In this document: piece by piece, positions 12,956 through 32,694 of the stretch
Layout: each line of letters starts with the position of its first letter
Numbering within the stretch: the stretch's first letter is position 1
Virus record (IMG/VR): IMGVR_UViG_3300032304_002285
Coordinates: 1-64,000 of that record
Source of the DNA: a virus
Strand: one strand, 5' to 3'
DNA: 64,000 nucleotides
Program-made: the position numbers and the translations under genes
Notes under the pieces: model-generated
Seen by the model: only the letters and a program-made list of their open reading frames with translations
The model's database searches: none
Told to the model about the DNA's origin: nothing

Positions 12956-13252
12956 ATGTATATTGCTGGTCCTTCAATTCCTCTTAAGATGGAGCAGAAT
13001 TTATCTAGTGTGGAAGTTCCGTGTCGTTACTCGAATTGTAAGGGTACGGCTTTAATGATTCAAGGTTCTAATAAACAGTGGCGGATTTATTGTCCGTATT
13101 GTTTTTTAGGAGACGTTTATAGAAACGGGAAGATTGGGTATAGGAACTTAGATTTGGGAAAGGTACTGGGTCAATGGTATGAACCTTCTACTCATCTTTC
13201 TTTGGTAATAGCATATGATGAAAAAGGAATTGATCATGAGGGTTGCCAATGA
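12956..13252 (+). CDS. Family A zinc-ribbon protein
   Basis: 98 aa, first gene of the main array. VPCRYSNCKG (C23-x4-C28), CPYC at 46-49, GQWYEPS, VIAYDEKG. It has a 20-residue N-terminal extension compared with its neighbours; ATG 12989 is an alternative start. AGGAAG precedes the ATG. Confidence 0.75.
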   Translation: MYIAGPSIPLKMEQNLSSVEVPCRYSNCKGTALMIQGSNKQWRIYCPYCFLGDVYRNGKIGYRNLDLGKVLGQWYEPSTHLSLVIAYDEKGIDHEGCQ

Positions 13253-13500
13253 GCTTCAAGAGAATGAAGATACCATGTAGGACCAAGAATTGCAGTGGTG
13301 CTTATTTGAAGAGAGTTGGCAAAAGGAAGAGGCTTTTTGATAAGGGATTCAATCGTCCATTTTGGCATTTAAGTTGTCAAAATTGTGGTTATGACTGGTC
13401 AACGGCAAGATCTCTAAGGAAGGTATTGGGTGAATGGTATGATGGTTTGTACTGTAGGACATTGGATTTTGTAATTATATTGAGTGAGTATGAGATATGA
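13249..13500 (+). CDS. Family A zinc-ribbon protein
   Basis: 83 aa; ATG overlaps the upstream stop by 4 nt. IPCRTKNCSG, a long basic insertion before CQNC (43-46), GEWYDG, FVIILSEYEI. Confidence 0.75.
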   Translation: MSFKRMKIPCRTKNCSGAYLKRVGKRKRLFDKGFNRPFWHLSCQNCGYDWSTARSLRKVLGEWYDGLYCRTLDFVIILSEYEI

Positions 13501-13700
13501 AGATTCCTTGTACTTATCTTGGGTGTTCGGGGGTTGTTCAGGTTTGGAAGGATAGTTGTTGGAGAGTTTATTGTCCTAAGTGTAAGTATCATGAGTTGCC
13601 GATAAAGTCTCGTAGTGAAGTTTTAAAAAGATGGTATAAATTTACTAAGGTATTACCGATAATAGTTTTATCAGAGACAGAAGCGGAGATTAAATCATGA
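13497..13700 (+). CDS. Family A zinc-ribbon protein
   Basis: 67 aa, close to the minimal form: IPCTYLGCSG (C5, C10), WRVYCPKC (C26, C29), RWYKF, PIIVLSETEAEI. Confidence 0.75.
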   Translation: MKIPCTYLGCSGVVQVWKDSCWRVYCPKCKYHELPIKSRSEVLKRWYKFTKVLPIIVLSETEAEIKS

Positions 13701-13897
13701 CGGTTAAGAGATCGAAGAAGCAGTATGGTGTTGCTCCTGGTTGTGTTCCTGTTCCTAGGGTTAAGGTTCATAAGTTTAAGACTTCATCCAAGCCAAGATT
13801 TTGTCCTGTTTGCCAGGGTAGTCGTAAGCTTGGAGTAGAGCTTGTTGGGATCTTTGACTGTACGACTCCTTGTTTTGCTTGTTTGTCTTGGGATTAA
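13697..13897 (+). CDS. Small zinc-finger protein, not family A
   Basis: 66 aa, basic N-terminus, C36-x2-C39 (FCPVCQGSRK) and C55-x3-C59-x2-C62 (CTTPCFACLSWD). Lacks the IPC start and terminal strand, so it is an unrelated zinc protein in the array. Confidence 0.65.
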   Translation: MTVKRSKKQYGVAPGCVPVPRVKVHKFKTSSKPRFCPVCQGSRKLGVELVGIFDCTTPCFACLSWD

Positions 13898-13898
13898 A

Positions 13899-14096
13899 AT
13901 GAGTGAGAATATCAAGTATGAGTTTTTGGGAATAGTTCTTTGCCAGATGGATGGGTGTAAGGGGAAGGCGTATGTTTCGTTAGAATTAGAAACAAGGTAT
14001 CTTACTATTTACTGTCCATCTTGTGGTTGGTGTGGTCTTCCATGGCCAGAGAGGGCGGGGTTTGCGATTGTGTTCAAGGAGAGAGTAGTTGAGTGA
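13899..14096 (+). CDS. Family A zinc-ribbon protein
   Basis: 65 aa; ATG 13899 one nt after the previous stop. VLCQMDGCKGKA, IYCPSCGWCG, FAIVFKERVVE. The late WY is lost. Confidence 0.65.
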   Translation: MSENIKYEFLGIVLCQMDGCKGKAYVSLELETRYLTIYCPSCGWCGLPWPERAGFAIVFKERVVE

Positions 14097-14325
14097 TTCC
14101 AGACAGAGGTTTATTGATTCATTGGAGACGGTTACTTTCTTTCCTTGCTGGAGGGATAATTGTGGTCCTGCAAGGCTTCTGAGGTTTAAGGATGGGGCTT
14201 GGACCATTGCGTGTCCTTATTGTGGTTTACAGCCCTTCTTTAAGTCTCCGACAAGAAAGGAAGCCTATTCTTCTTGGTTTCAGGATATCAAGGAAATTGT
14301 TGTTTACGATGAAGTCGAAATCTGA
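14089..14325 (+). CDS. Family A zinc-ribbon protein
   Basis: 78 aa from TTG 14089. FPCWRDNCGPARLL, ACPYCGL, SSWFQD, IVVYDEVEI. It has a 17-residue N-terminal extension. Confidence 0.65.
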   Translation: MSDSRQRFIDSLETVTFFPCWRDNCGPARLLRFKDGAWTIACPYCGLQPFFKSPTRKEAYSSWFQDIKEIVVYDEVEI

Positions 14326-14569
14326 CACATATTTTTCATGGGAAATTCCTTGTGGGGATAAGGAGTGTGGGTCAACTGCTTTCTTGGTCTATTGGTTTCA
14401 CAATGGCATTCACAAATGGAAATGTTATTGCATGGAGTGTAGGAGGGCAACTTTGGAGTATAATGAGTCTAAGGATGCATTGGACATATTTTTTAATGGC
14501 TATTGGGGTGATCTAAGGAACAGAGTGGTGGTTTATGACCTCCGGGGCGAAGCTCCTATCGTTTTATGA
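14309..14569 (+). CDS. Family A zinc-ribbon protein
   Basis: 86 aa. IPCGDKECGSTAFL, CYCMEC, and a terminal strand VVVYDLRGEAPIVL that runs past the usual end. 17-nt overlap upstream and 35-nt overlap downstream. Confidence 0.65.
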   Translation: MKSKSDTYFSWEIPCGDKECGSTAFLVYWFHNGIHKWKCYCMECRRATLEYNESKDALDIFFNGYWGDLRNRVVVYDLRGEAPIVL

Positions 14570-14762
14570 GGTTCCTTGCCCCAAGTGTGATAAAGAAGCG
14601 AGATTAGAGGCATGGGATTGTTCTGCTGGGATTGTATGGAGAGTTCATTGTTGGCATTGCTATTTTATTGGTAATAATAGTTCTAGTGCTAAATCTGCCT
14701 TGTGGTTTGCTTGTAAGCTTCCTGAGGATTGCATAATGATTTATGGGCAAGAAGAGATATGA
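14535..14762 (+). CDS. Family A zinc-ribbon protein, variant
   Basis: 75 aa. First pair is C-x2-C (VPCPKCDKEA) rather than C-x4-C. Then WRVHCWHC and CIMIYGQEEI. ATGA overlap with the next gene. Confidence 0.65.
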   Translation: MTSGAKLLSFYEVPCPKCDKEARLEAWDCSAGIVWRVHCWHCYFIGNNSSSAKSALWFACKLPEDCIMIYGQEEI

Positions 14763-15019
14763 TTTTTACTCACAACGAGACACGGGACTTTAATCTGAGT
14801 AATAGTGGATTAATAGTGGACGATTTCATTAAGAATCGTTCTTATGGGAGGAAGTTAGTTTTAAGGATAAAGATTGGTCGATATATAGATGAAATAGATA
14901 AGATTCCTTTGGCTTGGGTTATGGTTTTCATTGGGAAGGGGAAATATTCAGATAAATATTTATCTGTTTTCCCTATGTATTCCATATTGTTTATTAAGGA
15001 GAGATTGATTGAAAGTTGA
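14759..15019 (+). CDS. Family B small protein
   Basis: 86 aa from ATG 14759. Start of a short family B run within the family A string. Ends FPMYSILFIKERLIES. Confidence 0.65.
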   Translation: MIFTHNETRDFNLSNSGLIVDDFIKNRSYGRKLVLRIKIGRYIDEIDKIPLAWVMVFIGKGKYSDKYLSVFPMYSILFIKERLIES

Positions 15020-15206
15020 ACAAATAGATCCAAGTAGCCGTTATGCTTCAAATGATCTTTTGTATTTGAAGTGTGTGGACAAGGGCAATGGGTTTATGAA
15101 TTTGTTTGTTCAGTTTATGGTTCCAGGGGGAAGGGTTAAAAAGCATAAAAGGATTTGTGTTCCTAGTCAGGTTATTATCACTTCGAGTGAGGAAATTATT
15201 CAATGA
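15009..15206 (+). CDS. Family B small protein
   Basis: 65 aa from TTG 15009, ending VPSQVIITSSEEIIQ, with a basic stretch RVKKHKRIC in place of the usual core. Confidence 0.6.
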   Translation: MKVEQIDPSSRYASNDLLYLKCVDKGNGFMNLFVQFMVPGGRVKKHKRICVPSQVIITSSEEIIQ

Positions 15207-15409
15207 AGGTTGGTGATTTTTATACACTTCATGATGATGCTGATTGTTTGATTATGCAGGTTGATATTCAGGGTCAAGAGTCTTATCCGGAGTGGGGATT
15301 TTTTAGGATTTATTTTATCTATTAAAAGCCTGATTTAACGACAAGTTTTGATGATATTGTTGTTCCTAAAAATAAGGTATTTGTAATCAATGAAAGCCCC
15401 TTGTCTTAA
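15203..15409 (+). pseudogene. Family B pseudogene (in-frame TAA)
   Basis: The frame starts MKVGDFYTLHDDADC and continues to VPKNKVFVINESPLS, a full-length family B pattern, but codon 41 is TAA (15323-15325). The CTA suppressor cannot read it. The 3' end still overlaps the next gene start. Confidence 0.7.
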
Positions 15410-15590
15410 ATGCGGAATAATGGTGGATTTAATTCGCCAAAGTAAATGGTATGTTGATATTGATTGTCCTAAGTGTAAAAAAATACAGCGCAATTTTTCA
15501 TTAAAGAGCGCGCTTGAGTTGATTCATATGTTTCAAGATTTTAAGGGAAATGGGAATCTTATTGTTGTATATGATGAGATTGGGTTATGA
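15390..15590 (+). CDS. Family A zinc-ribbon protein, recent duplicate
   Basis: 66 aa with C-x2-C at both sites (APCLKCGIMVDLIRQ, DCPKCKK) and ending LIVVYDEIGL. Nearly identical in pattern to the next gene, including DNA-level identity over long stretches. Confidence 0.75.
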   Translation: MKAPCLKCGIMVDLIRQSKWYVDIDCPKCKKIQRNFSLKSALELIHMFQDFKGNGNLIVVYDEIGL

Positions 15591-15787
15591 AAGCTCCTTG
15601 CTTTAAGTGTGGAATGATGGTGGATTTAATTCGCCAAGGTAAATTGTATGTTGATGTTGGTTGTCCTAAGTGTAAAATCATCTATCGTGGTTATTCGTTA
15701 AAATATTTGATTCGGTTGATTCATAAATATCAAGAGAGTCAGGGGAGTGGAAATCTTATTGTAGTGTATGATGAGGTTTGTTTATGA
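15587..15787 (+). CDS. Family A zinc-ribbon protein, recent duplicate
   Basis: 66 aa, APCFKCGMMVDLIRQ ... GCPKCKI ... LIVVYDEVCL. Tandem copy of 15390, ATGA overlaps on both sides. Confidence 0.75.
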   Translation: MKAPCFKCGMMVDLIRQGKLYVDVGCPKCKIIYRGYSLKYLIRLIHKYQESQGSGNLIVVYDEVCL

Positions 15788-15984
15788 AGATTCCTTGTGG
15801 ATTTTGTGATGGGTTAGTTGATGTTGTTGATGTTGATTGTGGGGTATATGTCCAGATTCGTTGTTTTAATTGTGGTGTGACGGTTAACGGGGATAATGTG
15901 GATGAGGCTTTCAATTTCTTTTATTATCATAAGCCTGATGGCTGGAACTCGACAGTAATTGTGTATAATGAGGTAGGCTTGTGA
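15784..15984 (+). CDS. Family A zinc-ribbon protein
   Basis: 66 aa. IPCGFCDGLVDVVDVD, RCFNCG, STVIVYNEVGL; same C-x2-C variant as its two upstream neighbours. Confidence 0.7.
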   Translation: MKIPCGFCDGLVDVVDVDCGVYVQIRCFNCGVTVNGDNVDEAFNFFYYHKPDGWNSTVIVYNEVGL

Positions 15985-16229
15985 AGGTTCATAAGGTTTC
16001 AAGAACTTTTAATCCTCCTATGTCAATGAGGTATCCTTGTTGCTATAATGGTTGTAGTGGGGTAGCAACACTACATTTCCGATGGGATGAAGTTTATATT
16101 TATTGTGATGATTGTCTTCTTAATAGTCCGTGGTTTGATTTAGATAAAATAGAGAAAGCATTTGGATGGTATTACGATGAAGATAGCAGTTTTAGGGACA
16201 TTATAATCCTATATGAAAATCCCTTGTAG
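15981..16229 (+). CDS. Family A zinc-ribbon protein
   Basis: 82 aa from GTG 15981. YPCCYNGCSGVATL, IYCDDC, GWYYDED, IIILYENPL. ATGs inside would cut off part of the extension only. Confidence 0.7.
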   Translation: MKVHKVSRTFNPPMSMRYPCCYNGCSGVATLHFRWDEVYIYCDDCLLNSPWFDLDKIEKAFGWYYDEDSSFRDIIILYENPL

Positions 16230-16419
16230 TTTATCAAGATGTTCTGATCTTGCGGAATTGGATAAAGGGCATCTTATTGATTCATGTTGTTATTATTGTT
16301 GTTGTTCTGGATGCCATCAATTAGGGTATCCTTGTGATGATTGGGAATCGGCTTTAAAGAGTTGGTATAGGAATTCGGACATTTCTCTTATTATTTTTTA
16401 TGGGGAAAGTCCCATATGA
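16213..16419 (+). CDS. Family A zinc-ribbon protein
   Basis: 68 aa. IPCSLSRCSDLAEL, a Cys-rich middle (CCYYCCCSGC), SWYRNS, LIIFYGESPI. The extra cysteines are unusual in the family. Confidence 0.7.
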   Translation: MKIPCSLSRCSDLAELDKGHLIDSCCYYCCCSGCHQLGYPCDDWESALKSWYRNSDISLIIFYGESPI

Positions 16420-16649
16420 AAATAGAGTTAGATAAGAGCAAGCCTTATTCTTCAATGTATAGAATTCCTTGTAATAAGGATTCATGTGTTGGTTCTGCTT
16501 TTTTTCGTTGGCATGGGGAGAAGGTTTTTATTTGGTGTGTTTCTTGTCTGGAACTCGGCTTTTCTTTTAATACGATAGAAGAGGCTCTTGCCGGTTGGTA
16601 TATACATGGTTTGTCTATGGTGATTGTTTTAGAAGATAAAGAGATATGA
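16416..16649 (+). CDS. Family A zinc-ribbon protein
   Basis: 77 aa. IPCNKDSCVGSAFFRW, IWCVSC, AGWYIHG, MVIVLEDKEI. Confidence 0.75.
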   Translation: MKIELDKSKPYSSMYRIPCNKDSCVGSAFFRWHGEKVFIWCVSCLELGFSFNTIEEALAGWYIHGLSMVIVLEDKEI

Positions 16650-16664
16650 CTGAAAGGATTGAGG

Positions 16665-16874
16665 ATGAAAGTTCCTTGTTGGAACCAATTTTGTAAAGAG
16701 TTGATTGAGATAGAGATGGACAATGGTTGGGCGTCTTGTGCTTGTGATAAGTGTGGGGTTCGGTGTTTGGGCAGAGATTCGGTCAAGAAGATATTGGGGG
16801 ATTGGTATGCGAATACTCACTTCGATTTGGTTGTTGTTTGGGAAGATGTTCAAGAAAAAGGATTACAGGGTTAA
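16665..16874 (+). CDS. Family A zinc-ribbon protein
   Basis: 69 aa from ATG 16665 (TTG 16659 also possible). VPCWNQFCKELIEIE, CACDKCG, GDWYANT, VVVWEDVQEKG. Confidence 0.7.
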   Translation: MKVPCWNQFCKELIEIEMDNGWASCACDKCGVRCLGRDSVKKILGDWYANTHFDLVVVWEDVQEKGLQG

Positions 16875-17076
16875 GATTCCTTGTTGGAATGCTAATTGTA
16901 CAACGGGAGCTAATCTGACATTCAAGGGAGGATGGTATACTTGTAGTTGTTTGAATTGCAAAAGTGGGTGTGGGAGTTCAGAGGGTGTTAAGGTTTTCGA
17001 GAGATGGTATTTATATTCAGAAGTGAATCTGGTGATAGTTCTGGAAGAAAAGACGATCTATAGATTTTGGAAGTAA
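16846..17076 (+). CDS. Family A zinc-ribbon protein
   Basis: 76 aa. IPCWNANCTTGANL, CSCLNCKSGCG, ERWYLYS, LVIVLEEKTI plus a short basic tail. 29-nt overlap with the previous gene. Confidence 0.7.
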   Translation: MFKKKDYRVKIPCWNANCTTGANLTFKGGWYTCSCLNCKSGCGSSEGVKVFERWYLYSEVNLVIVLEEKTIYRFWK

Positions 17077-17301
17077 TTGATGATTGAAAGATTGATAATA
17101 CCATGCAGGGACCATGGCTGTAATAGAATTGCTTATTTGAATAGGATAAATGAGCGTTGGTATCATATTGGTTGTACTTGTGGTCAATCTGGTTGGACGG
17201 AAACTAACAATACAAACAAGGCGATAGAAGAAGCTCTTATTGCATGGTATTTGGAGGATGGTCTAGGTTTGGTGATAGTGACTGAAGAGTGTCCTCTGTG
17301 A
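17077..17301 (+). CDS. Family A zinc-ribbon protein
   Basis: 74 aa from TTG 17077 directly after the previous TAA (or ATG 17080). IPCRDHGCNRIAYL, GCTCGQ, AWYLEDG, LVIVTEECPL. Confidence 0.7.
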   Translation: MMIERLIIPCRDHGCNRIAYLNRINERWYHIGCTCGQSGWTETNNTNKAIEEALIAWYLEDGLGLVIVTEECPL

Positions 17302-17525
17302 AAGATTTTGAGATTAGAATTCCATGTAGGAGTACGAATTGTAGCAAGTTAGCTGTTGCAAGAAAATCTAATAGTAATTGGGGCAGGGTGGCTTGTGGTT
17401 GTGGGCAGAATTGTTGGATGGAGACTCCTAAAAAAGACACGCAATTTTTGGATTCTATTATTTCTCAATGGTATTTCGAGGACGATCCTAATCTGGTTAT
17501 CATCATTGAAGAAAATCCATTATGA
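17298..17525 (+). CDS. Family A zinc-ribbon protein
   Basis: 75 aa from GTG 17298. IPCRSTNCSKLAVA, ACGCGQNCW, SQWYFEDD, LVIIIEENPL. Close to its upstream neighbour. Confidence 0.7.
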   Translation: MKDFEIRIPCRSTNCSKLAVARKSNSNWGRVACGCGQNCWMETPKKDTQFLDSIISQWYFEDDPNLVIIIEENPL

Positions 17526-17752
17526 AAAAAGGTTACTTAAAAATTCCTTGTTGGGATAGGGATTGTAAAGAGTTGGCAATTTTATCAGAAGGGGGTAGGT
17601 GGTTTAGGGTAAGATGTAGTGCATGTAATTCAGCAAGTCTTATGAGTGAAAAACGGAATGAGTCATTGGCAGATTGGTACTTGGATTATGCTTCCCACAG
17701 TCATGTGATTATTTTAGATTGTGTTGTCATCACTGAAGAAAATCCATTATGA
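17522..17752 (+). CDS. Family A zinc-ribbon protein
   Basis: 76 aa. IPCWDRDCKELAIL, RCSACNSASL, ADWYLDY, VVITEENPL. First of four closely related tandem copies (17522-18417). Confidence 0.75.
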   Translation: MKKGYLKIPCWDRDCKELAILSEGGRWFRVRCSACNSASLMSEKRNESLADWYLDYASHSHVIILDCVVITEENPL

Positions 17753-17976
17753 TAAAATATCTAAAAATACCTTGTATGAATAATAGTTGTCGAGGATTGG
17801 CTATTTTATCAATTGGGGATGAGTGGCGCAGGGTACATTGTCCCACATGTTATTCTGAAAGTGTTTTAAGTAGAAGTTTTAAAGACACATTAGAATATTG
17901 GTACCAAGATCGCAATTTTTATATTAAAAAGTCAACGATAACCAACATTATCATCATTGAAGAAAAGCCGTTATGA
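17749..17976 (+). CDS. Family A zinc-ribbon protein
   Basis: 75 aa. IPCMNNSCRGLAIL, HCPTCYSESVL, EYWYQD, IIIIEEKPL. Second of the four related copies. Confidence 0.75.
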   Translation: MIKYLKIPCMNNSCRGLAILSIGDEWRRVHCPTCYSESVLSRSFKDTLEYWYQDRNFYIKKSTITNIIIIEEKPL

Positions 17977-18197
17977 AAATCCCGGAAATGAAAGTTCCTT
18001 GTTGGAATTTATATTGTAGTGAGCTAGCAGTCCTAGAGACAAAGGGTAATTATTACCAAATATATTGCCCTGGTTGTGAAACCGTGAGTCTTGCAAGTAG
18101 AAATGTATATGAGTCATTGGATAATTGGTATGAGGTTTTTAACGACAAGAGTAGAAATAAAACCCATGTCATAATCCTTGAAGAAAAGCCTTTATGA
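17973..18197 (+). CDS. Family A zinc-ribbon protein
   Basis: 74 aa. VPCWNLYCSELAVLE, YCPGCETVSL, DNWYEV, HVIILEEKPL. Third of the four related copies. Confidence 0.75.
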   Translation: MKIPEMKVPCWNLYCSELAVLETKGNYYQIYCPGCETVSLASRNVYESLDNWYEVFNDKSRNKTHVIILEEKPL

Positions 18198-18207
18198 GGG
18201 AATCGGA

Positions 18208-18417
18208 ATGAAAATTCCTTGTTGGAATAAAAATTGTAATGGGTTGGGTGTTTTAATGTATGAAGATGGTTGGTTTAGGGTAAATTGTTCTACTTGTAAT
18301 TCGGGAAGTAATGTTTGTCGAAATTGGGACAAATCATTAGAAGATTGGTATTGTGATTATGATTTCCAAAAGGCATCCTTGGAGAAGATTATCATCATTC
18401 AAGAAAAGCCATTATGA
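18208..18417 (+). CDS. Family A zinc-ribbon protein
   Basis: 69 aa from ATG 18208. IPCWNKNCNGLGVL, NCSTCNSGSNV, EDWYCDY, IIIIQEKPL. Fourth of the related copies; 10-nt gap upstream instead of an overlap. Confidence 0.75.
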   Translation: MKIPCWNKNCNGLGVLMYEDGWFRVNCSTCNSGSNVCRNWDKSLEDWYCDYDFQKASLEKIIIIQEKPL

Positions 18418-18647
18418 ATCTTTATAAAATACCATGTGTACATGAGAGGTGTCCTGGTCCTGCTTACTTCAAGCGGGAATTGAAGAATTGGTATTATTGT
18501 AAGTGCTATGTATGTGGACACGAATCCATACACTATCAGAATAAGCTTAGGGCTATGACTAATTGGTATAATGAATCAGTTTTTTGGGATTCTAATAGAG
18601 AGAAGAAGACATATCTGGTGATTATCATAGAAGAAACAGAGTTATGA
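18414..18647 (+). CDS. Family A zinc-ribbon protein
   Basis: 77 aa. IPCVHERCPGPAYF, CKCYVCGHESI, TNWYNES, LVIIIEETEL. Confidence 0.75.
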   Translation: MNLYKIPCVHERCPGPAYFKRELKNWYYCKCYVCGHESIHYQNKLRAMTNWYNESVFWDSNREKKTYLVIIIEETEL

Positions 18648-18913
18648 AACCATTACAGGATTCGAGGATTCCTTGTTTTCAGAAAGAGTGTCATGGATTG
18701 GCGAGGATAACTCCTGTAGGAGGTGGGAATGAATGTGGGATTATTTGTAGTGGTTGCTATATTTGTGGGCATCAAACATCAAAAGACTTGATTTATTTAT
18801 TAGATTCTTGGTACAGGGGAGAGACATACAGCAATCTCAATAAAGCTCCGGAATACTTCAGTATTTTTCCAGAGATGACCATGATCCTTATTCTTGAAGA
18901 GGCTGAGAATTAA
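18644..18913 (+). CDS. Family A zinc-ribbon protein
   Basis: 89 aa. IPCFQKECHGLARI, SGCYICGHQ, DSWYRGE, an inserted loop, MILILEEAEN. Last of this string before the glycosyltransferase. Confidence 0.7.
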   Translation: MKPLQDSRIPCFQKECHGLARITPVGGGNECGIICSGCYICGHQTSKDLIYLLDSWYRGETYSNLNKAPEYFSIFPEMTMILILEEAEN

Positions 18914-18919
18914 AAGAGG

Positions 18920-20539: not shown

Positions 20540-20558
20540 TGATAGATATGGATTGAGA

Positions 20559-20774
20559 ATGTTTAAGCACAAACACAAGCCGTGTTCTGTTCCTTGTTAT
20601 TGTGGTTCTAGGTTATCTGATCTTCGGCAATTGAAGAATGGCGTTATCAAGATAAAATGCAGGAATTGCAAGCATGCTCTTTATTTTGGAAAGAATGCTT
20701 ATCAATTGGCTGATTGGCTAGTTAAAGAGAATGATAATTCGGGGATATTTATTGCAAGTGAGAAAGAGATTTGA
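20559..20774 (+). CDS. Family A-like zinc protein
   Basis: 71 aa. VPCYCGSRLSDLRQL (C-x-C pair), KCRNCKHAL, ADWLVKEN, GIFIASEKEI. Basic N-terminus. Confidence 0.7.
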   Translation: MFKHKHKPCSVPCYCGSRLSDLRQLKNGVIKIKCRNCKHALYFGKNAYQLADWLVKENDNSGIFIASEKEI

Positions 20775-21644: not shown

Positions 21645-21646
21645 GT

Positions 21647-22571: not shown

Positions 22572-22574
22572 GAA

Positions 22575-24721: not shown

Positions 24722-24725
24722 GAGA

Positions 24726-25232: not shown

Positions 25233-25248
25233 TAGGGCTGGAACGGCA

Positions 25249-25497
25249 ATGGCGATGAAAAAATCCAGAGGTGATTTACACATATGGGATTTTCTGATTA
25301 AGAAAAGTGACACTCCGAATTGGAAGGTTGATCTTACTCGTTGTTGGGTAACGGAGTGTAAGGGAGAGAAGTTTCATGTATTGCAATTGGCAGACAAGAT
25401 AGGGAAGCAGAACAAGTCTTGGGTTGGTGATTACTGGGAAGAAGTGTTTTTTCCATTTGGTTACATTTTAGTGATAGAGGTTGAAGTCATTGAGTAA
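25249..25497 (+). CDS. Family B small protein
   Basis: 82 aa. DLHIWDFLIKKSDTPNW ... FPFGYILVIEVEVIE. Similar start to the next gene. TATAAT box at 25226-25233. Confidence 0.7.
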   Translation: MAMKKSRGDLHIWDFLIKKSDTPNWKVDLTRCWVTECKGEKFHVLQLADKIGKQNKSWVGDYWEEVFFPFGYILVIEVEVIE

Positions 25498-25714
25498 GCA
25501 CTTGCATTTATCTGATTTTTTAATGCCAGTATCGAAAGTGTGGCTTACTCCTTCCAAAGATTGGGAAATAAGAAGAGTAAGAATTCATGAGAGGAAAAAG
25601 TTGGATGGTGAGAGTGTCAATGTTTTTTATCTTGTGGGAGATCATGGGAAATGTTGGCAAAGGGATTTTCCGTTGCATTCAATTCTCATAGTGGATGTAG
25701 TTTTTTATGAGTGA
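25490..25714 (+). CDS. Family B small protein
   Basis: 74 aa from TTG 25490. LHLSDFLMPVSKVWLTP ... FPLHSILIVDVVFYE. Confidence 0.65.
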   Translation: MSKHLHLSDFLMPVSKVWLTPSKDWEIRRVRIHERKKLDGESVNVFYLVGDHGKCWQRDFPLHSILIVDVVFYE

Positions 25715-25949
25715 GTATTGTGAATTATCTATTGAAGAGATTGAGTTTAATCCTCCTTTGGACATTATGAAGTTGATTTGTGGTTATCCATGGTCTATTC
25801 CGATTGACATAATTCGTCTAGAGGAAAGAACGTATGCAGGTAAAGTTAGTTTGGTGATTTGTAGTCTTGGTAAGGGTGGTGATTATTTGGTTCTAAAAGT
25901 AGCATCTTATGGATCGGTATTTGTCTATGACGAACATGATGAAAAGTGA
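25707..25949 (+). CDS. Family B small protein, diverged
   Basis: 80 aa. ELSIEEIEFNPP ... YGSVFVYDEHDEK. Confidence 0.65.
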   Translation: MSEYCELSIEEIEFNPPLDIMKLICGYPWSIPIDIIRLEERTYAGKVSLVICSLGKGGDYLVLKVASYGSVFVYDEHDEK

Positions 25950-26169
25950 AGTTTTTATTGATCTTGGTTGTTTAATTCCCATAAGTTATTTCAATCAAAT
26001 AGAAAGAGATACAGCCAGGATTAATAAGATCAGGTTAAATGAGACCAAGGATGGCGATCTTCTTATGATTTTTGGTATTATGAAGGGTGATAATTATGAG
26101 AGTACTATGTGTTTAGGTTCAAGTCCTCAGGGTGTTTTGTACACTTACGGGGAGCAGGGGTTTGAATAA
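25939..26169 (+). CDS. Family B small protein
   Basis: 76 aa. VFIDLGCLIPISYFNQ ... SSPQGVLYTYGEQGFE. Start at ATG 25939 (25936 equally possible). Confidence 0.65.
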   Translation: MKSEVFIDLGCLIPISYFNQIERDTARINKIRLNETKDGDLLMIFGIMKGDNYESTMCLGSSPQGVLYTYGEQGFE

Positions 26170-26422
26170 GAAGGGATTAAATAAAGACCATGATTTTTTG
26201 ATTAGTCAGGATCGGTCTATGGTCATGGCTGGTTTAGTGATGATTTGTGAAAACAAAGATGATACTATTGAAAATTGTATTCGTTGTTCTCACTCTAAAG
26301 AACATAAGATCACTAAAGATTCTGGTTGTAATTTTTGTGTTATTTGTATGAATGCGATTGGTCCTGCTTTTTGTCTTCCTGTTAATTTGATTGTTATTAA
26401 GGAAGAGTTTACAGACTATTAG
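26162..26422 (+). CDS. Array protein with cysteines
   Basis: 86 aa from TTG 26162. ENCIRCSHSKEHKI and CNFCVICMNAIG give two Cys pairs within a family B-like frame (LPVNLIVIKEEF). Confidence 0.6.
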   Translation: MNKKGLNKDHDFLISQDRSMVMAGLVMICENKDDTIENCIRCSHSKEHKITKDSGCNFCVICMNAIGPAFCLPVNLIVIKEEFTDY

Positions 26423-26427
26423 GAGTG

Positions 26428-26499
26428 ATGGAATTTCTACGGTTTTTGCTTCATTTTCCAGAAAACACTGTTTGTGTGACCAGGGGTAGTTTGTTTTGA
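26428..26499 (+). pseudogene. C-terminal remnant of a family B gene
   Basis: 23 codons, of which FPENTVCVTRGSLF matches FPKDTVYVIKGRLF at the end of the following gene. A debris copy of that gene's 3' end. Confidence 0.65.
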
Positions 26500-26759
26500 A
26501 AATTCTTACCAAAAAGTCTGAAATTTTTCGAGAATTTATAGTAGACATAGATAGGGCTGATTTTACTGATCGTAAACATATCAGCCTTGTTACGTTTGGT
26601 ATTAAGAAAATTACTTCGGTAACAGTTAAAGACTATGAAGATGGCAAGTTATTGTTGATTGCATTTGGGAAGAGGAAGCAGCGCAAGACTAATTACTATG
26701 TACTTTCTGATGAATTTCCCAAAGACACTGTTTATGTGATAAAGGGTAGATTGTTTTGA
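26496..26759 (+). CDS. Family B small protein
   Basis: 87 aa from TTG 26496, overlapping the remnant's stop. Ends FPKDTVYVIKGRLF. Confidence 0.7.
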   Translation: MKILTKKSEIFREFIVDIDRADFTDRKHISLVTFGIKKITSVTVKDYEDGKLLLIAFGKRKQRKTNYYVLSDEFPKDTVYVIKGRLF

Positions 26760-26797
26760 AATTTCGTGATTTAAATTTGAAGAGACACACAAATTGA
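26756..26797 (+). pseudogene. N-terminal remnant of a family B gene
   Basis: 13 codons (MKFRDLNLKRHTN), in the same TTG-overlap position as real starts, then a stop. The next gene starts MKSFNLREV. Confidence 0.45.
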
Positions 26798-27003
26798 AGA
26801 GTTTTAATTTAAGAGAAGTTTATCCGGGTGCAAAGAACGAAAAGGTATTTCCTGTTGTCGTTGTTCATTCTAGTTATTCTCATAATCAAATGCATCAATT
26901 TGTTTATTGGTTTAGGGTTGGGGATAACCAACGGATGATGATGGAAGAGTTTCCTCTTGGGGAAATCCTAGTAAAGAATGAAAGGCTTTTAGATGAACTA
27001 TAG
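26794..27003 (+). CDS. Family B small protein
   Basis: 69 aa from TTG 26794. FNLREVYPGAKNE ... FPLGEILVKNERLLDEL. Confidence 0.65.
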   Translation: MKSFNLREVYPGAKNEKVFPVVVVHSSYSHNQMHQFVYWFRVGDNQRMMMEEFPLGEILVKNERLLDEL

Positions 27004-27268: not shown

Positions 27269-27520
27269 TTGGTCAAAAATCGGAATGATATGTTGATAGT
27301 CAAGGTACCTTGTGGATTTTGTGGGAACACGGCTGTTTTGACTAAACATGTGGAAGCTTTAGTAGACACTGAGGGTTATTCTTTTCTTGTTGAGTGTGGG
27401 TCTTGTAGATCGAAGTTATTTGGGTTTAATATCAAAAGATTGCTAACTCGTTTTTATAATTTTGGTAAGTACGGCAAGAGTGGCAAGATTAATTTCATAA
27501 TTGTTTGGAATGAGAATTGA
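27269..27520 (+). CDS. Family A zinc-ribbon protein
   Basis: 83 aa from TTG. VPCGFCGNTAVLTK, ECGSCRSKL, NFIIVWNEN. Confidence 0.7.
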   Translation: MVKNRNDMLIVKVPCGFCGNTAVLTKHVEALVDTEGYSFLVECGSCRSKLFGFNIKRLLTRFYNFGKYGKSGKINFIIVWNEN

Positions 27521-27776
27521 GGGAGAGATGGCAGGATTCATGGTTTTACCTTGTACCATTCCGGGTTGTGGCGGGATGAGCCACGTTTATTCTGTTGATA
27601 AGACATATGAGAAGGCCAATCTTGGTAAGTATTTTTGTCGTTGTTCTCGTTGTCTTTTTGTTTCATCTTTGGCTTTTGATATTCCTGGGTTGGTGAAAAA
27701 GTTATTGAAGGATGGAGAGTCTGATCTAGTTTTTGTTTTTGAGGGTGAAATATTTAACACGGGATTTCAGGAATGA
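27510..27776 (+). CDS. Family A zinc-ribbon protein
   Basis: 88 aa. LPCTIPGCGGMSHVY, CRCSRCLFVS, LVFVFEGEIF plus a short tail. Confidence 0.7.
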   Translation: MRIEGEMAGFMVLPCTIPGCGGMSHVYSVDKTYEKANLGKYFCRCSRCLFVSSLAFDIPGLVKKLLKDGESDLVFVFEGEIFNTGFQE

Positions 27777-28003
27777 GAATCCCTTGTTGTACTCCGGGAT
27801 GTTTGGGGGCTGCTTATGTCTATAATTCTTTGTACATAGGATTCGGTTGTGGTTGTCCTGTTTGTCATAAAGAGACGGGATGGCATGGATTAAAAGAAGA
27901 TATGCTTAATGCTTGGTATAAAGAGGTGGAACTAGGGCTGATCATTTGTTTTGAAGAGCAGGGTTGGTGGAAGACAGGGAGAAGGTGGGATGGGGCGGTA
28001 TAA
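27773..28003 (+). CDS. Family A zinc-ribbon protein
   Basis: 76 aa. IPCCTPGCLGAAYVY, GCGCPVCHKETGW, NAWYKEVE, LIICFEEQG and a Trp-rich tail. Confidence 0.75.
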   Translation: MRIPCCTPGCLGAAYVYNSLYIGFGCGCPVCHKETGWHGLKEDMLNAWYKEVELGLIICFEEQGWWKTGRRWDGAV

Positions 28004-28027
28004 TGGATCTAGGAGGGTCATGAGGGT

Positions 28028-28222
28028 ATGAAATCGGTATGGACACTACCTTGCTGCGATTCGGGTTGTAAGGGTCCTGCTTTTATGCTTAGGAATGACA
28101 ATGGTTTCATGTGTAGGTGTTCTCGCTGTAGCTTGATGACTTATGGGCATGAGAGTTGGAGAGAAGCGGCTAATAGCTGGGTAAGTGCTTTGGGTTGGGG
28201 TTGTATTTTCATTTTGGAGTAG
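28028..28222 (+). CDS. Family A zinc-ribbon protein
   Basis: 64 aa. LPCCDSGCKGPAFML, CRCSRCSLMTYG, NSWVSAL, CIFILE. AGGAGGG lies upstream; ends TAG. Confidence 0.75.
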   Translation: MKSVWTLPCCDSGCKGPAFMLRNDNGFMCRCSRCSLMTYGHESWREAANSWVSALGWGCIFILE

Positions 28223-28271: not shown

Positions 28272-28529
28272 ATGGAAATGCCTTGTGTTGATTGTGAGGG
28301 TCTTTTTGTTCAAGATTTTTTAGAATCGAGTACTTTACCTTTTGTAGGTAAGAGTGAGAGAGAATATTCGGTTACGGGTGTTGGTGTTGATGAAGAGTCC
28401 CTTATAGAAAAGGGTTGTCATGTTTTGATGGTTCTATACTTTGATCCAAAAGTTGGCCGGGTTAGTTGGCTTAGGTTGCCTTTCCCTGAGGGCTCCTTGT
28501 TTGTGATCAAGGGAATTGCCTGTCTTTAG
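28272..28529 (+). CDS. Family B small protein
   Basis: 85 aa. Starts MEMPCVDCEGLFVQDFL, combining a Cys pair with a family B body; FPEGSLFVIKGIACL. TAG stop directly abuts the in-frame GTG of the next gene. Confidence 0.65.
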   Translation: MEMPCVDCEGLFVQDFLESSTLPFVGKSEREYSVTGVGVDEESLIEKGCHVLMVLYFDPKVGRVSWLRLPFPEGSLFVIKGIACL

Positions 28530-28817
28530 GTGATATTTAAAGTTAAGGCTTTGTGTATGGATGATAAGGCGATATTTAAGCCTGAGGGTTTGAAGATTGG
28601 GGATTTTGTTAATCAGGGGTTCTTACCTGCTGATCAATATTTATGGTTAGAACATTCAGATGATATCTTCGGTGTTTACGTTTGTGAGAGATGGTATTTA
28701 AGCGGTAAAGGTGTTAATCAAACAGAACTTTACTTTTTTAGAAAATACACAAATAGAATTGAGAGTTTGAGAATTCATTTTCCAGTGGGAATGATTTTAG
28801 TGGTAGGGGAGACTTGA
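28530..28817 (+). CDS. Family B small protein
   Basis: 95 aa from GTG 28530. FKPEGLKIGDFVNQGFL ... FPVGMILVVGET. In-frame continuation of 28272 if TAG is read through. Confidence 0.65.
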   Translation: MIFKVKALCMDDKAIFKPEGLKIGDFVNQGFLPADQYLWLEHSDDIFGVYVCERWYLSGKGVNQTELYFFRKYTNRIESLRIHFPVGMILVVGET

Positions 28818-28819
28818 TT

Positions 28820-29059
28820 ATGTTATTTAAACCTAATGGTGTTCGGCTTAAGGATGTATTTTTAAACAGGGCAAGCGAAGACGAAAGTAATGAATATGAT
28901 AATCTTATTACGAATATTACTATTGATGGTGATTGGGTAGTAACAGGGAAGAAGTGTCAATATTTGACTGCTTTTTATTTTGACAAGAAACACAGGAGGT
29001 TTGAGCATATCTCTAGATTCTTTCCAAGTGATACCATTTTGACTGTAATGGAGCATTGA
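28820..29059 (+). CDS. Family B small protein
   Basis: 79 aa from ATG 28820. FKPNGVRLKDVFLNR ... FPSDTILTVMEH. Confidence 0.7.
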   Translation: MLFKPNGVRLKDVFLNRASEDESNEYDNLITNITIDGDWVVTGKKCQYLTAFYFDKKHRRFEHISRFFPSDTILTVMEH

Positions 29060-29340
29060 GAGTGTCAGTCGCAGAATTTGAACTTGGCAGAGAAGAAATG
29101 AAGGTAAGGGATTTTACTGATCCTGCTAATTTTTCCTGTTTTTGTGCATCTGAGAGAGAATATGCTGTTTTTTGTGTTTCGGTTGACGATAAGGTTCTTG
29201 CCGATAAAGGATCAAATGCAATAACAATACGTTTTTTTGATAAGAGACTTGGGCGTGTTAGTTTTGTGAGGATGTCATTCCCGGCTGGTTTGATATATTT
29301 CATAAAAGAGAGTAGGGAGTTAGAGGGAATACCAAATTGA
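29056..29340 (+). CDS. Family B small protein
   Basis: 94 aa from TTG 29056, or ATG 29098. MKVRDFTDPANF ... FPAGLIYFIKESRELE. Confidence 0.7.
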   Translation: MRVSVAEFELGREEMKVRDFTDPANFSCFCASEREYAVFCVSVDDKVLADKGSNAITIRFFDKRLGRVSFVRMSFPAGLIYFIKESRELEGIPN

Positions 29341-29579
29341 AATCTGAAGATCTTAGAGTTAAAGATTTCACAGAGCCATATGGATTGTATGAGCTATTTC
29401 CGTATGAAGGGGAATATTTCATAGAAAATATTACCTTGGATGATGAGCCATTTAGGAAAGAAATGTGGAATCTTTTGGTTGTTAATTTTTATGATATAAG
29501 AGAGAAGAAACCCGGATCATTTGGCATAACATTCCCTGATGGTTTGATATTTTATATCCAGGAGGTTTATGATCTTTAG
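29337..29579 (+). CDS. Family B small protein
   Basis: 80 aa from TTG. DLRVKDFTEPYGLYE ... FPDGLIFYIQEVYDL; paralogue of 29056. Confidence 0.7.
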   Translation: MKSEDLRVKDFTEPYGLYELFPYEGEYFIENITLDDEPFRKEMWNLLVVNFYDIREKKPGSFGITFPDGLIFYIQEVYDL

Positions 29580-29826
29580 ACCATTAGGTTTGATTTTTGG
29601 TGATATCGTTAATGATCCTGATTGTGTATTTTATGGGATTCACCCATGGTTGACTGTTACAGATGTGTCTTATTCGGATTTGGGATGGGAACGAGACGGG
29701 TACGCCTTCACAGAGGTTGCTGTTGTTTGTTACAATGAAGTTCAAGAGCGTTTTATAACAGTGGTGGTTGACCAGCCTGAAGGCAGTGTTTATGTTGTGA
29801 AGTGCAGGGAGTTGGTTCAGGAATGA
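29569..29826 (+). CDS. Family B small protein
   Basis: 85 aa. FRPLGLIFGDIVNDPD ... QPEGSVYVVKCRELVQE. The start lies upstream of the previous TAG, so that TAG must act as a stop at least part of the time. Confidence 0.7.
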   Translation: MIFRPLGLIFGDIVNDPDCVFYGIHPWLTVTDVSYSDLGWERDGYAFTEVAVVCYNEVQERFITVVVDQPEGSVYVVKCRELVQE

Positions 29827-30086
29827 AGACGATGATTCTTGATGGTAATTATTTTGCCAATCGCCTTGATAGTGGAGATCATATTGTCAGTGTTCTTTTC
29901 CGTTGTCATGAGAAGATTGAAGGGGAGTGGGTTTCATCATTCTTTGTGAGGATTGTCACGAAATGGCAAACTCAATCAACCATTATTCATTATGTTCCGC
30001 AGGGTCTAATTGAGTTAGTGGAAGAGAGGCGGGTAAAGAAGACTTGTTATGGGTTTATTGTTGAGGATGAAGGAGTGGGGGTATAA
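29823..30086 (+). CDS. Family B small protein, diverged
   Basis: 87 aa from ATG 29823. HYVPQGLIELVEERRV then an extended tail. Confidence 0.65.
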   Translation: MKTMILDGNYFANRLDSGDHIVSVLFRCHEKIEGEWVSSFFVRIVTKWQTQSTIIHYVPQGLIELVEERRVKKTCYGFIVEDEGVGV

Positions 30087-30325
30087 TGAATCGCATATTG
30101 CTTAGAATGCCTTGTTATTCGCATTGTTGTTCAGGTGAGGCGGTAATGAGGGAATTCCCAAAGGATCTGGGATATTCTATAACTTGTCGGATTAAGACTT
30201 GTCAAATTGGGAAATTAATTTTACCAAATAAGACATTTAAGGAAGCGGCTAGGATGTTTTTGAGGAAGAGAGAGATAATTTTGATCAGGGAAGAGCATCC
30301 GATTAAGAAGAGGAGGTTGAAATGA
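30086..30325 (+). CDS. Family A zinc-ribbon protein
   Basis: 79 aa. MPCYSHCCSGEAVM, TCRIKTCQIG, EIILIREEHPI and a basic tail. Confidence 0.65.
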   Translation: MNRILLRMPCYSHCCSGEAVMREFPKDLGYSITCRIKTCQIGKLILPNKTFKEAARMFLRKREIILIREEHPIKKRRLK

Positions 30326-30648
30326 TGCCATGGTGGTTAGCTCATCTTATAGGGGACTATTTGATTCAGAATGATTGGATGGCAACAAGGAAGAACAAGC
30401 AGACGATTCCTTGTTTGATTCATGGGATTACCTATTGTTTGCCTTTTCTGTTGTGTAATATGATTTGGTGGCAAATTGTTTTGATTGGGGTAGAGCATTT
30501 CTTACAGGATAGACTTGGGTTTGCCAGATGGTTTATGAGACATACGGATCATGAGTTATTTGCTACTGGGGCATTATCGCCTTGGTCTATAGTTGTGACT
30601 GACAATGTGATTCACTTGGTTTTCATTTGGCTTGTGACTCTTTTGTGA
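30322..30648 (+). CDS. DUF3307-like membrane protein
   Basis: 108 aa. HLIGDYLIQNDWMATRKN (8-25) is the DUF3307 start. CLIHGITYCLPFLL, WWQIVLIGVEHFLQDR and VIHLVFIWLVTLL are membrane segments with buried His and Asp. Family function unknown; embedded in the array with ATGA/GTGA overlaps. Confidence 0.75.
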   Translation: MMPWWLAHLIGDYLIQNDWMATRKNKQTIPCLIHGITYCLPFLLCNMIWWQIVLIGVEHFLQDRLGFARWFMRHTDHELFATGALSPWSIVVTDNVIHLVFIWLVTLL

Positions 30649-30887
30649 AGACGAGAGAGATAAAACTACCTTGTCCTAAATGCTCAAGTGTTTTGACGTT
30701 GTATTTGTTTCCTGATTACGTTGGCTATTTTGCTGAATGTCTTTCGTGTAGGTGTAAAAAACTAGGTGATGGGTATTTCCCTCTTCATACCAAGAGGAAT
30801 ATGGTAAAGAATTCGATTGTTTCATGGTTTTCTTACAATCCGTCTCCTAATTGTTTTATTGTCTTGAGTGAAAAGAGGCTCAAGTGA
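30645..30887 (+). CDS. Family A zinc-ribbon protein
   Basis: 80 aa from GTG 30645. LPCPKCSSVLTLYL, ECLSCRCKK, SWFSYN, FIVLSEKRLK. Confidence 0.7.
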   Translation: MKTREIKLPCPKCSSVLTLYLFPDYVGYFAECLSCRCKKLGDGYFPLHTKRNMVKNSIVSWFSYNPSPNCFIVLSEKRLK

Positions 30888-31117
30888 AGAAAAGGATTCC
30901 TTGTAAGACGCCGGATTGCCGTGGTCCTGCCTATTTGGTTAGCACCGAGAGATTGTTTAATCAAATGTGTGATTATGATTGTTATTGTAGTCTTTGTGGG
31001 GCAGGGTCAACTGAATTTGGTGCTGCTTGCTGGAGTATGAATACTGCTTTTGATTCTTTCTATAAATGGAGTGATGGTCCATCCAGTATTATCATCATGA
31101 AGGAGACTCCTCTTTGA
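30884..31117 (+). CDS. Family A zinc-ribbon protein
   Basis: 77 aa from GTG. IPCKTPDCRGPAYLV, CYCSLCGAGST, YKWSDG, IIIMKETPL. Confidence 0.75.
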   Translation: MKKRIPCKTPDCRGPAYLVSTERLFNQMCDYDCYCSLCGAGSTEFGAACWSMNTAFDSFYKWSDGPSSIIIMKETPL

Positions 31118-31356
31118 ATGAAAGAAGGAAGATAGGGATTCCTTGTCCGAGGTGTTCTGGTATTCTTCATTTGGTTTTATTAGAGCATTCGGATGGATAT
31201 TTCCCTGATTGTAAGGGGTGTGAGTTTAATGATGGAAATTTTTATTCTATTGTTTCATATGGGAAAAAGATAAAACACGCTTTGGCGCATTGGAATAAGC
31301 ATTATCCAATTGGAGATATGGTTGTTGTTATTGAAGAGAGGACGGTGGATCAATGA
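31114..31356 (+). CDS. Family A zinc-ribbon protein
   Basis: 80 aa from TTG. IPCPRCSGILHLVLLE, DCKGCEFND, MVVVIEERTV; closest to 30645. Confidence 0.7.
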   Translation: MNERRKIGIPCPRCSGILHLVLLEHSDGYFPDCKGCEFNDGNFYSIVSYGKKIKHALAHWNKHYPIGDMVVVIEERTVDQ

Positions 31357-31631
31357 AAAAGATTTACTCAGCAGTTGCTACTGTTCACGTTCTTCTTGGA
31401 GAGGAAGAGCTACGGGAAGCCATTCAGCAGGCTAACTTGGCAATTATTGGGTCAGAGCATTGTAATTGCTATAATGCTGATGGGAAGATTGTTCCTAGGG
31501 AGATAGATAAGGAGACTGAGGAGAAATTGCTTAATACTCAGTGTAGGATGCGGTGTGGGTGGAATGTGTCTGTTGAGTATGACGTGGATGAAAACGGTAA
31601 TATTGTGAATATTAGATTGAAGAAGCCATGA
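31353..31631 (+). CDS. Hypothetical protein in array
   Basis: 92 aa. Helical start (EEELREAIQQANLAIIG), several Cys (HCNCYN, CRMRCGW) and a beta tail (VDENGNIVNIRLKKP). Not recognised. Confidence 0.65.
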   Translation: MKKIYSAVATVHVLLGEEELREAIQQANLAIIGSEHCNCYNADGKIVPREIDKETEEKLLNTQCRMRCGWNVSVEYDVDENGNIVNIRLKKP

Positions 31632-31867
31632 AGGCTGAGATAGGGAATTTGGTGGTTCCTTGTCCTCATTGTGGTAAGAAAGCGACTTTGAGTATCGGTA
31701 TTTATACTCATTGGATTTGTGTTTGTTTATCTTGTCGTAAGTTTTTGCCATCTGTTTTGTGTAAGGAGCAGTGTGCATATGATAGGGATAGCTTAGAATT
31801 CATTTTACATCATTGGTTTTTGGATAGAGCTATGCCCATTTATGTATTGGAGGAGATTGCAGAATGA
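31628..31867 (+). CDS. Family A zinc-ribbon protein
   Basis: 79 aa. VPCPHCGKKATLSIG, VCLSCRKF, HHWFLDR, PIYVLEEIAE. Confidence 0.7.
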   Translation: MKAEIGNLVVPCPHCGKKATLSIGIYTHWICVCLSCRKFLPSVLCKEQCAYDRDSLEFILHHWFLDRAMPIYVLEEIAE

Positions 31868-32172
31868 ATATTGAAAAGGTAAAGGAATTAATCCCTCTTG
31901 CTTGTGATACCCCTTGGTATGATGAATCTCCTGATTTCAAGGCTGGTTCAACTGGAGTTGTAGACAAAACAAGGAAGGGTTATGTACTTGGTCCTTCCTT
32001 GCCTCATCTTCCGAGGAAAAATGACATTAGGTTGATTTTGCAGTTGGTTAATTCGGTGAGTGAGATTGTAGCCGTGGTTGAGGCGGCTAAGAAGGTTGTG
32101 GATAAGGTAGATGATTTAGATGCTTTAGCTGAATTAGAGAAAGCACTTTATGATTTGGAGGTGAAACAATGA
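31864..32172 (+). CDS. Hypothetical helical protein
   Basis: 102 aa; acidic N-terminal half, then a long helix (EIVAVVEAAKKVVDKVDDL). Not recognised. ATGA overlaps on both sides. Confidence 0.65.
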   Translation: MNIEKVKELIPLACDTPWYDESPDFKAGSTGVVDKTRKGYVLGPSLPHLPRKNDIRLILQLVNSVSEIVAVVEAAKKVVDKVDDLDALAELEKALYDLEVKQ

Positions 32173-32453
32173 AGAAGACGTGTAAATGGCCAGAGAAGCC
32201 AGGATTCTACGGGTATATTAATTATCGGGAATGGTTTTATGGTCCGTATGATACGGCTAAGGGGTTAGAGGATTGCTTGCTGGAAGAGCAGGAGAAGGAT
32301 TATTGGTTTGATTATGATGGATTGACAGTTCGGTATGTTCCAAAAAAACCAGCAGATCTTGCTGAGTTCATGAAGACTCCGAATATTAAATATGGGCATA
32401 GGTTTATTCTTGTTTTGGAAGAGGTGGCTTATAATGAAGCTACTGGACGATAA
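32169..32453 (+). CDS. Hypothetical protein
   Basis: 94 aa, aromatic-rich (EKPGFYGYINYREWFYG). The tail FILVLEEVAYNEA resembles the array ending. Confidence 0.65.
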   Translation: MKKTCKWPEKPGFYGYINYREWFYGPYDTAKGLEDCLLEEQEKDYWFDYDGLTVRYVPKKPADLAEFMKTPNIKYGHRFILVLEEVAYNEATGR

Positions 32454-32694
32454 GTTTAAGATTAGTAGGACTTATGTTTTCCCTTGTTTTTGTGAAAAGG
32501 GATTGTGTGAGCTTGCCAGAATGAATGATAAAATGTGGTATATGGAGTGTGATCATTGTCATGTGTTTTCTAATTATGGCAGACCAAAGAAGAAGGAAGC
32601 CATAGTTTCGTGGTATAATATGGGTTACAATTCCAAGAGGAAGTTGATTGATTTCATAATTGTATTGGAAGAGGAGATGATTCTTTTGTATTAA
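32434..32694 (+). CDS. Family A zinc-ribbon protein, last of array
   Basis: 86 aa from ATG 32434. FPCFCEKGLCELARM, ECDHCHVFS, SWYNMG, FIIVLEEEMILLY. Confidence 0.7.
   Translation: MKLLDDKFKISRTYVFPCFCEKGLCELARMNDKMWYMECDHCHVFSNYGRPKKKEAIVSWYNMGYNSKRKLIDFIIVLEEEMILLY

What the first reader, a model, noticed from the sequence alone, without database searches (positions are those of the whole stretch)
12956..32694. A 20-kb gene farm of two small protein families
About 40 family A (Cys-pair ribbon) and 30 family B (no Cys) genes, counting the 0.3-2.9 kb run, lie in nearly unbroken head-to-tail strings. They share a C-terminal strand pattern (I-I-V-L-E-E) but not an N-terminus. Divergence ranges from near-identical neighbours (15390/15587, 21647/21867) to barely recognisable, so expansion is ongoing. 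Such diversification of a zinc-ribbon fold suggests recognition of many variable partners (host or defence proteins), but I know no described family that matches. Directly seen: the repeats and motifs. Inference: zinc binding and function.
Basis: partly seen in the sequence, partly recalled or inferred. Interest (0 to 1): 0.88.

Follow-up and report, generated by a model that had tools for sequence, protein, structure and literature searches.

The report
Phage array of Lar-like zinc-ribbon genes
A 181-kb virus of bacteria carries 45 side-by-side copies of a small zinc-ribbon protein related to anti-restriction (Lar) proteins, mixed with a second, unknown small family, and both end in the same short, strongly conserved tail, which suggests a toolkit of variable binders that plug into one common partner.

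Summary
The arrays are real. Family A has 45 intact genes, all between 12,956 and 32,694, and all 45 pass a leave-one-out profile test. Family B is weaker: 23 profile places, 13-16 of 28 candidates by leave-one-out.

Family A is not without kin. It is a divergent Lar-type (restriction-alleviation) zinc ribbon, shown by profile-profile comparison (E 7e-8; none of 150 shuffled controls) and by fold search. No member reaches Pfam's cut-off. Family B is a predicted three-stranded sheet without a match.

The most unusual part is the tail. A and B align only over their last ~13 residues (IIIxE / PxGxIxVxxE). In A these are among the best-conserved positions besides Pro-Cys and the cysteines, yet they lie outside the predicted domain with low confidence. 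Similar tails end other small proteins in related phages that lack A and B.

My reading: operons of variable binding heads carrying one beta-strand docking tail, probably for counter-defence or host takeover. Architecture and Lar kinship are computed; tail function and target are inferred.

The parts
12956..14762 (+). Family A block 1: genes 12956-13252, 13249-13500, 13497-13700, 13902-14096, 14089-14325, 14300-14569, 14535-14762 (the last has an A head and a B-type tail, KLPEDCIMIYGQEEI). An unassigned ORF, 13697-13897, lies between
   Evidence: profile hits and leave-one-out; tail
14759..15206 (+). Family B: 14759-15019 (supported) and 15009-15206 (candidate, little more than the tail)
15390..18913 (+). 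Family A block 2, sixteen genes: 15390-15590, 15587-15787, 15784-15984, 15981-16229, 16213-16419, 16416-16649, 16665-16874, 16870-17076, 17080-17301, 17289-17525, 17522-17752, 17749-17976, 17973-18197, 18208-18417, 18414-18647, 18644-18913
   Evidence: model made on 18208-18417
20559..20774 (+). Family A gene
20917..21111 (+). Family B gene
   Evidence: leave-one-out 2.1e-3
21283..23709 (+). Family A block 3, eleven genes: 21283-21474, 21471-21644, 21647-21877, 21867-22094, 22087-22335, 22332-22571, 22575-22799, 22796-23017, 23014-23262, 23237-23506, 23488-23709
23776..27003 (+). Family B block: 23776-23997, 23984-24220, 24210-24452, 24449-24721, 24726-25232 (B domain with a C-terminal extension), 25249-25497, 25490-25714, 25707-25949, 25909-26169, 26496-26759, 26794-27003
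   Evidence: 24726 held out and found at 7.4e-7; several weak in leave-one-out
27269..28222 (+). Family A block 4: 27269-27520, 27528-27776, 27773-28003, 28028-28222
   Evidence: 27308-27430 is the best Lar-profile place of the genome (E 1.1e-4)
28272..29826 (+). Family B core block: 28272-28529, 28557-28817, 28820-29059, 29062-29340, 29337-29579, 29569-29826 (29823-30086 is an unsupported candidate)
   Evidence: model made on 28272-28529
30086..32694 (+). Family A block 5: 30086-30325, 30627-30887, 30884-31117, 31114-31356, 31628-31867, 32434-32694, interspersed with unrelated genes
   Evidence: 30666, 31141 and 31658 are Lar-profile places
1449..2878 (+). Outlying family B run: 1664-1864, 1861-2064, 2051-2257 (B); 1449-1670, 2244-2465, 2380-2697 and 2663-2878 share mainly the tail
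18388..18414 (+). Example of the common tail: IIIIQEKPL at the end of 18208-18417; the same style ends nearly all A and B genes
   Evidence: column conservation and tail pattern in 41 of 45 A genes; tail outside the modelled domain; A-B alignment limited to it

Best explanation
The region is a set of operon-like gene strings, in the flexible part of a large tailed-phage genome, coding for small two-part proteins. The head varies: in 45 genes it is a divergent Lar-type zinc ribbon (A), in about 20 a small beta-sheet domain (B). The C-terminal tail is constant in style: a short hydrophobic strand ending in an acidic residue, IIIxE in A and PxGxIxVxxE in B. Shown by computation: the arrays, Lar homology of the A head, the tail as the only similarity between A and B, and (less firmly) recurrence of tail-like ends on other small proteins in related phages. 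Inferred: the heads bind different host targets (as lambda Ral acts on a type I restriction-modification enzyme) and serve counter-defence or host takeover; the tail docks, by adding a strand to a sheet, onto one common partner of phage or host, so that copies can diversify in the head while keeping the same hook. Copies arise by local duplication, with conserved gene-end/gene-start junctions as likely recombination points.
For: 45 intact A genes with dN below dS. Lar kinship: profile-profile E 6.6e-8 over both knuckles and helix, 0 of 150 shuffles; named fold matches mostly restriction-alleviation proteins; Lar is the most frequent Pfam and PHROG match; 4 of 5 Lar-profile places of the genome are A genes; a related phage has one canonical Lar gene. 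Tail: in A, I/V at three positions and E in 35 of 39, entropy 0.56-1.76 bits against more than 3 bits at most head positions; low-confidence and unpacked in the A model, coil in the B model; only shared part of A and B; A head with B-type tail at 14535-14762; tail-like ends on other proteins of related phages. lambda Ral acts on EcoKI-type enzymes through HsdM (PMC12707154).
Against: No member reaches Pfam's Lar cut-off. No partner, host or expression data. The recurrence of the tail elsewhere is statistically modest: with a matrix trained on the window alone, 8 of 150 against 2.0 at threshold 7 but no excess at 8 or 9; the stronger count (15 of 315 against 1.2) used a pattern chosen after seeing some of the sequences. 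RalR of E. coli is annotated as a DNase toxin, so Lar-type ribbons need not be anti-restriction proteins. Low confidence of the tail in a model from a shallow alignment is weak evidence.
Confidence: 0.42

Rival explanations
1. The tail is simply the last strand of each protein's own fold, or a strand by which these proteins pair with themselves or each other (A with A, A with B), with no common outside partner. The proteins then form oligomers or mixed assemblies.
For: A hydrophobic strand is a usual way to form dimers; A and B genes are interleaved and so likely made together. The AlphaFold jobs were monomers only.
Against: Tail-like ends occur on small proteins in related phages that show no A or B genes, so A-B pairing cannot be the general role; the tail is not packed in the monomer model.
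Confidence: 0.25
2. The heads act on transcription or nucleic acids (host or phage RNA polymerase, DNA), as many small zinc ribbons do, and are takeover regulators rather than counter-defence proteins.
For: Zinc ribbons are common in transcription proteins (own knowledge); weak scattered matches of A to RNA polymerase subunits and aIF2-beta in the PDB.
Against: Those matches are not significant (E 0.2-1), while Lar kinship is. It explains neither the number of variants nor the tail.
Confidence: 0.18
3. Neutral amplification: local duplication by recombination at conserved gene junctions produced copies that drift with little function (a gene accordion at rest).
For: Junction repeats D3 and D4; similar genes are neighbours and some pairs have dN/dS near 0.8.
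Against: 45 of 45 frames are intact after deep divergence, structural positions and tail stay conserved, and most pairs have dN well below dS.
Confidence: 0.1
4. The shared ending is a by-product of translation coupling: the EE codons hold the Shine-Dalgarno signal of the next, overlapping gene.
For: ATGA overlaps do favour a last codon ending in A (TTA, ATA), which explains the frequent final L or I.
Against: EE is coded GAAGAA 8, GAAGAG 6 and GAGGAG 2 times, not as a fixed Shine-Dalgarno word; the hydrophobic strand is unexplained; the ending also occurs where genes do not overlap.
Confidence: 0.05

Closest known systems
Lar / RalR restriction-alleviation family (Pfam PF14354; PHROGs 599, 6795, 5558)
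   Same: Two cysteine knuckles on a beta hairpin followed by a helix with a conserved Trp; similar size; profile and fold similarity.
   Different: Below the curated cut-off; first knuckle mostly PCxxxxC (25 of 43) or PCxC (6), CxxC in only 10; WY instead of WN; extra C-terminal strand; 45 copies in one genome, where related phage G006 has one canonical gene.
Phage lambda Ral (anti-restriction)
   Same: Small phage protein, here a functional analogy through the name of the Lar family; Ral acts on the type I methylase-restriction complex (PMC12707154).
   Different: No sequence comparison with Ral was made here; no restriction target known for A.
Short docking peptides that add a strand to a partner sheet, e.g. 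SUMO-interacting motifs (own knowledge)
   Same: Three to four consecutive I/V/L followed by acidic residues, outside a folded domain.
   Different: No such partner known in this phage or its host; analogy of form only.
Other small-gene arrays in the same phage group
   Same: Runs of small paralogous genes; in G006 some with similar tails.
   Different: Different families: 'NGMLTIWDD' proteins and small Cys proteins in G006; about 50 leucine-rich-repeat-like genes in G012.

Membership tests
Lar restriction-alleviation family (PF14354) | score above Pfam's curated cut-off (28.6 bits) | tested here: not met
   best A place 20.2 bits; 0 of 5 places over the cut-off
Lar restriction-alleviation family (PF14354) | homology over both knuckles and the helix by profile comparison | tested here: met
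   hhalign probability 94.6, E 6.6e-8, 47 columns; 0 of 150 column shuffles; the Lar alignment had only 6 sequences
Lar restriction-alleviation family (PF14354) | CPFCG-type first knuckle (CxxC) | tested here: not met
   CxxC spacing in 10 of 43 only; most have four residues between
Lar restriction-alleviation family (PF14354) | Trp-Asn at the end of the helix | tested here: inconclusive
   Trp in 27 of 41, but followed by Tyr in 26 of 41 rather than Asn
Lar restriction-alleviation family (PF14354) | same fold | tested here: met
   model pLDDT 84; named matches mostly restriction-alleviation proteins, probability up to 1.00, E 0.03-0.5; E-values are individually weak for so short a protein
Lar restriction-alleviation family (PF14354) | restriction-alleviating activity | not testable with these tools
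   needs an experiment
SIM-like docking peptides (analogy only) | hydrophobic strand core with acidic flank, outside a folded domain | tested here: met
   columns 61-66; tail pLDDT 53-66
SIM-like docking peptides (analogy only) | binding to a beta-grasp partner | not testable with these tools
   no partner known; needs an experiment

The most novel reading that the evidence does not exclude
The tail is a phage-encoded docking code: dozens of unrelated small proteins (zinc ribbons, beta sheets, helical proteins) across a phage clade carry one C-terminal strand that recruits them to a single hub, so that new heads can be added like cassettes.
Probability: 0.28. Interest if true: 0.88.

Novelty: new variant of a known kind. 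Interest (0 to 1): 0.7.

Why it matters
It would be the largest array of Lar-type genes I know of (own knowledge, not exhaustively searched), and a natural library of about 45 diverged binders on one scaffold with a constant tail. If the tail is a docking signal, it gives a direct handle: the shared partner of all these proteins could be found in one pull-down, and the heads would then reveal many host or defence targets.

Tried and rejected
Pfam, PHROGs, PDB and fold searches for family B: nothing significant. Relatives of A and B in IMG/VR with single proteins or a tight alignment: none; the broad alignments A1 and A2 were too diverse to scan. Relatives in cultured phages: none. A and B profiles against 29 records of related phages: no credible hit (the one weak A hit, in G021, lies antisense to a core gene; the same profiles ring on the own genome). 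Stop-codon recoding: rejected, because TAG ends 14 of 124 genes of 120 aa or more. Embedded Shine-Dalgarno as the cause of the EE ending: rejected. Promoter and terminator scans no better than shuffles. Literature searches for comparable phage arrays found none, which is not proof of absence.

Full report
WHERE IT IS. The window is bases 1-64,000 of a 180,758-bp virus record. The record carries a replicative helicase, a primase and a DNA polymerase III alpha subunit, a ribonucleotide reductase and a 2,216-residue protein that I take for the tape measure by its length. Six IMG/VR records with a polymerase 48-100% identical were found. One is the same phage (G001, 99.999% identical to bases 107,946-180,758). 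G002, G006 and fragments G003-G005 share gene order over about 77-175 kb, while most of bases 1-77,000 is specific to this phage. The array lies in this flexible part, just after a cluster of tRNA genes.

THE OBSERVATION. An iterated profile of family A finds 45 genes, all between 12,956 and 32,694, and the record-wide six-frame search gives 45 places, the same genes. All 45 pass leave-one-out with close relatives removed. Family B is looser: 23 places, 13 to 16 of 28 candidates by leave-one-out. The nearest pairs are 67% and 58% identical in protein, not near-identical. Across the 25 best pairs dN/dS, where measurable, is 0.19-0.87. Similar genes tend to be neighbours, which indicates local duplication, and the sequence around gene junctions recurs (repeats D3 and D4).

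FAMILY A. Pfam's Lar family is the most frequent weak match (5 of 41 members, best 3.5e-4), and Lar-like PHROGs lead that library. In the own genome 4 of the 5 PF14354 places are A genes, none above the cut-off. I built a small Lar alignment from E. coli RalR, four phage proteins and the one canonical Lar gene of the related phage G006. Profile-profile comparison aligned it with A over both knuckles and the helix (E 6.6e-8); no column shuffle in 150 came near (best 15 against 38 bits). The AlphaFold model has mean pLDDT 84, and its named fold matches are mostly restriction-alleviation proteins. So A is a divergent relative of Lar, not a formal member.

FAMILY B. The model is a three-stranded sheet (mean pLDDT 86). 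No sequence or fold library gives a significant match.

THE TAIL. A and B profiles align only at the end (0 of 150 shuffles). In A the I/V columns and the following acidic residue rank close to the cysteines in conservation, while most head positions vary freely. Yet the model leaves the tail unpacked and uncertain. One gene, 14535-14762, combines an A head with a B-type tail. The glutamates use mixed codons, so selection acts on the protein. In related phages, which show no A or B genes, small proteins of other kinds end similarly: APEGCLKIWEI, IPNGCLLVMEK, VPPGCLLVTNN, IPEGTVVVWHE. Pooled, 15 of 315 small proteins carry P.G.[LIVM].[VITL] in the last 28 residues against 1.2 expected. Caution: that expression was chosen after seeing some of these sequences, and a few of the 15 are probably not real genes. 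A matrix trained only on the window's B genes gives 8 of 150 against 2.0 at threshold 7 and no excess at thresholds 8 and 9. The comparison with a set of G006 cysteine proteins used proteins I had picked for their tails and is illustrative only. Gene 138764-138946 of this phage, in the conserved part, may be a position-matched, tail-bearing counterpart of genes in G002 and G009.

MECHANISM. I read the region as an arsenal of binding heads with a common hook. The Lar kinship points to counter-defence: lambda Ral speeds up first-strand modification by type IA restriction-modification enzymes, and sensitivity to it resides in HsdM (PMC12707154). A hydrophobic strand with acidic flank outside the fold is the form of peptides that dock by strand addition; that comparison rests on my own knowledge. 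Both functional steps are inference.

NOVELTY. Each A head is a variant of a known fold; the number, the operon arrangement, family B and the tail are, as far as these searches go, undescribed. The families were not found in 29 related records, several of them fragments, nor by the scans of IMG/VR and cultured phages, but those scans reach only close relatives.

Noticed in passing
window 7758-8558, 8575-8862, 19715-20539, 33593-33856, 34027-34434, 34773-35936, 35958-36728, 37375-38202; record positions 66444, 75951, 79331, 129834, 159626: Many otherwise different proteins carry an amphipathic helix motif, usually near the N-terminus (A.ELLKIAKELV type). It could be a targeting or propeptide signal, e.g. 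for packaging into the head.
   Followed up: no
window 24726-25232: A family B domain fused to an extra C-terminal part ending in VKEAFIKLAESMV, which recalls the LLKIA helix motif.
   Followed up: no
L007:11612-15415 (record 175612-179418): The 1,268-residue ribonucleotide reductase matches phage homologues over only about 70% of its length, in 2-3 pieces, which suggests an inserted stretch such as an intein.
   Followed up: no
window 5701-5775: A tRNA with anticodon CTA (possible amber suppressor), although TAG is used as an ordinary stop (14 of 124 genes of 120 aa or more). The related phage G006 also has one.
   Followed up: partly
record G012 (L230-L242), about 35-62 kb after reversal of the contig: A different gene farm in a distant relative: about 50 tandem genes of leucine-rich-repeat-like proteins (LTKLPDGLKVNGDLNL units), 100-190 aa each.
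   Followed up: partly
G006 17681-19523 and 20055-21760 (L097, L098): Two runs of eight small genes in the related phage: 'NGMLTIWDD' paralogues and small cysteine proteins, several with tails like those of A and B.
   Followed up: partly
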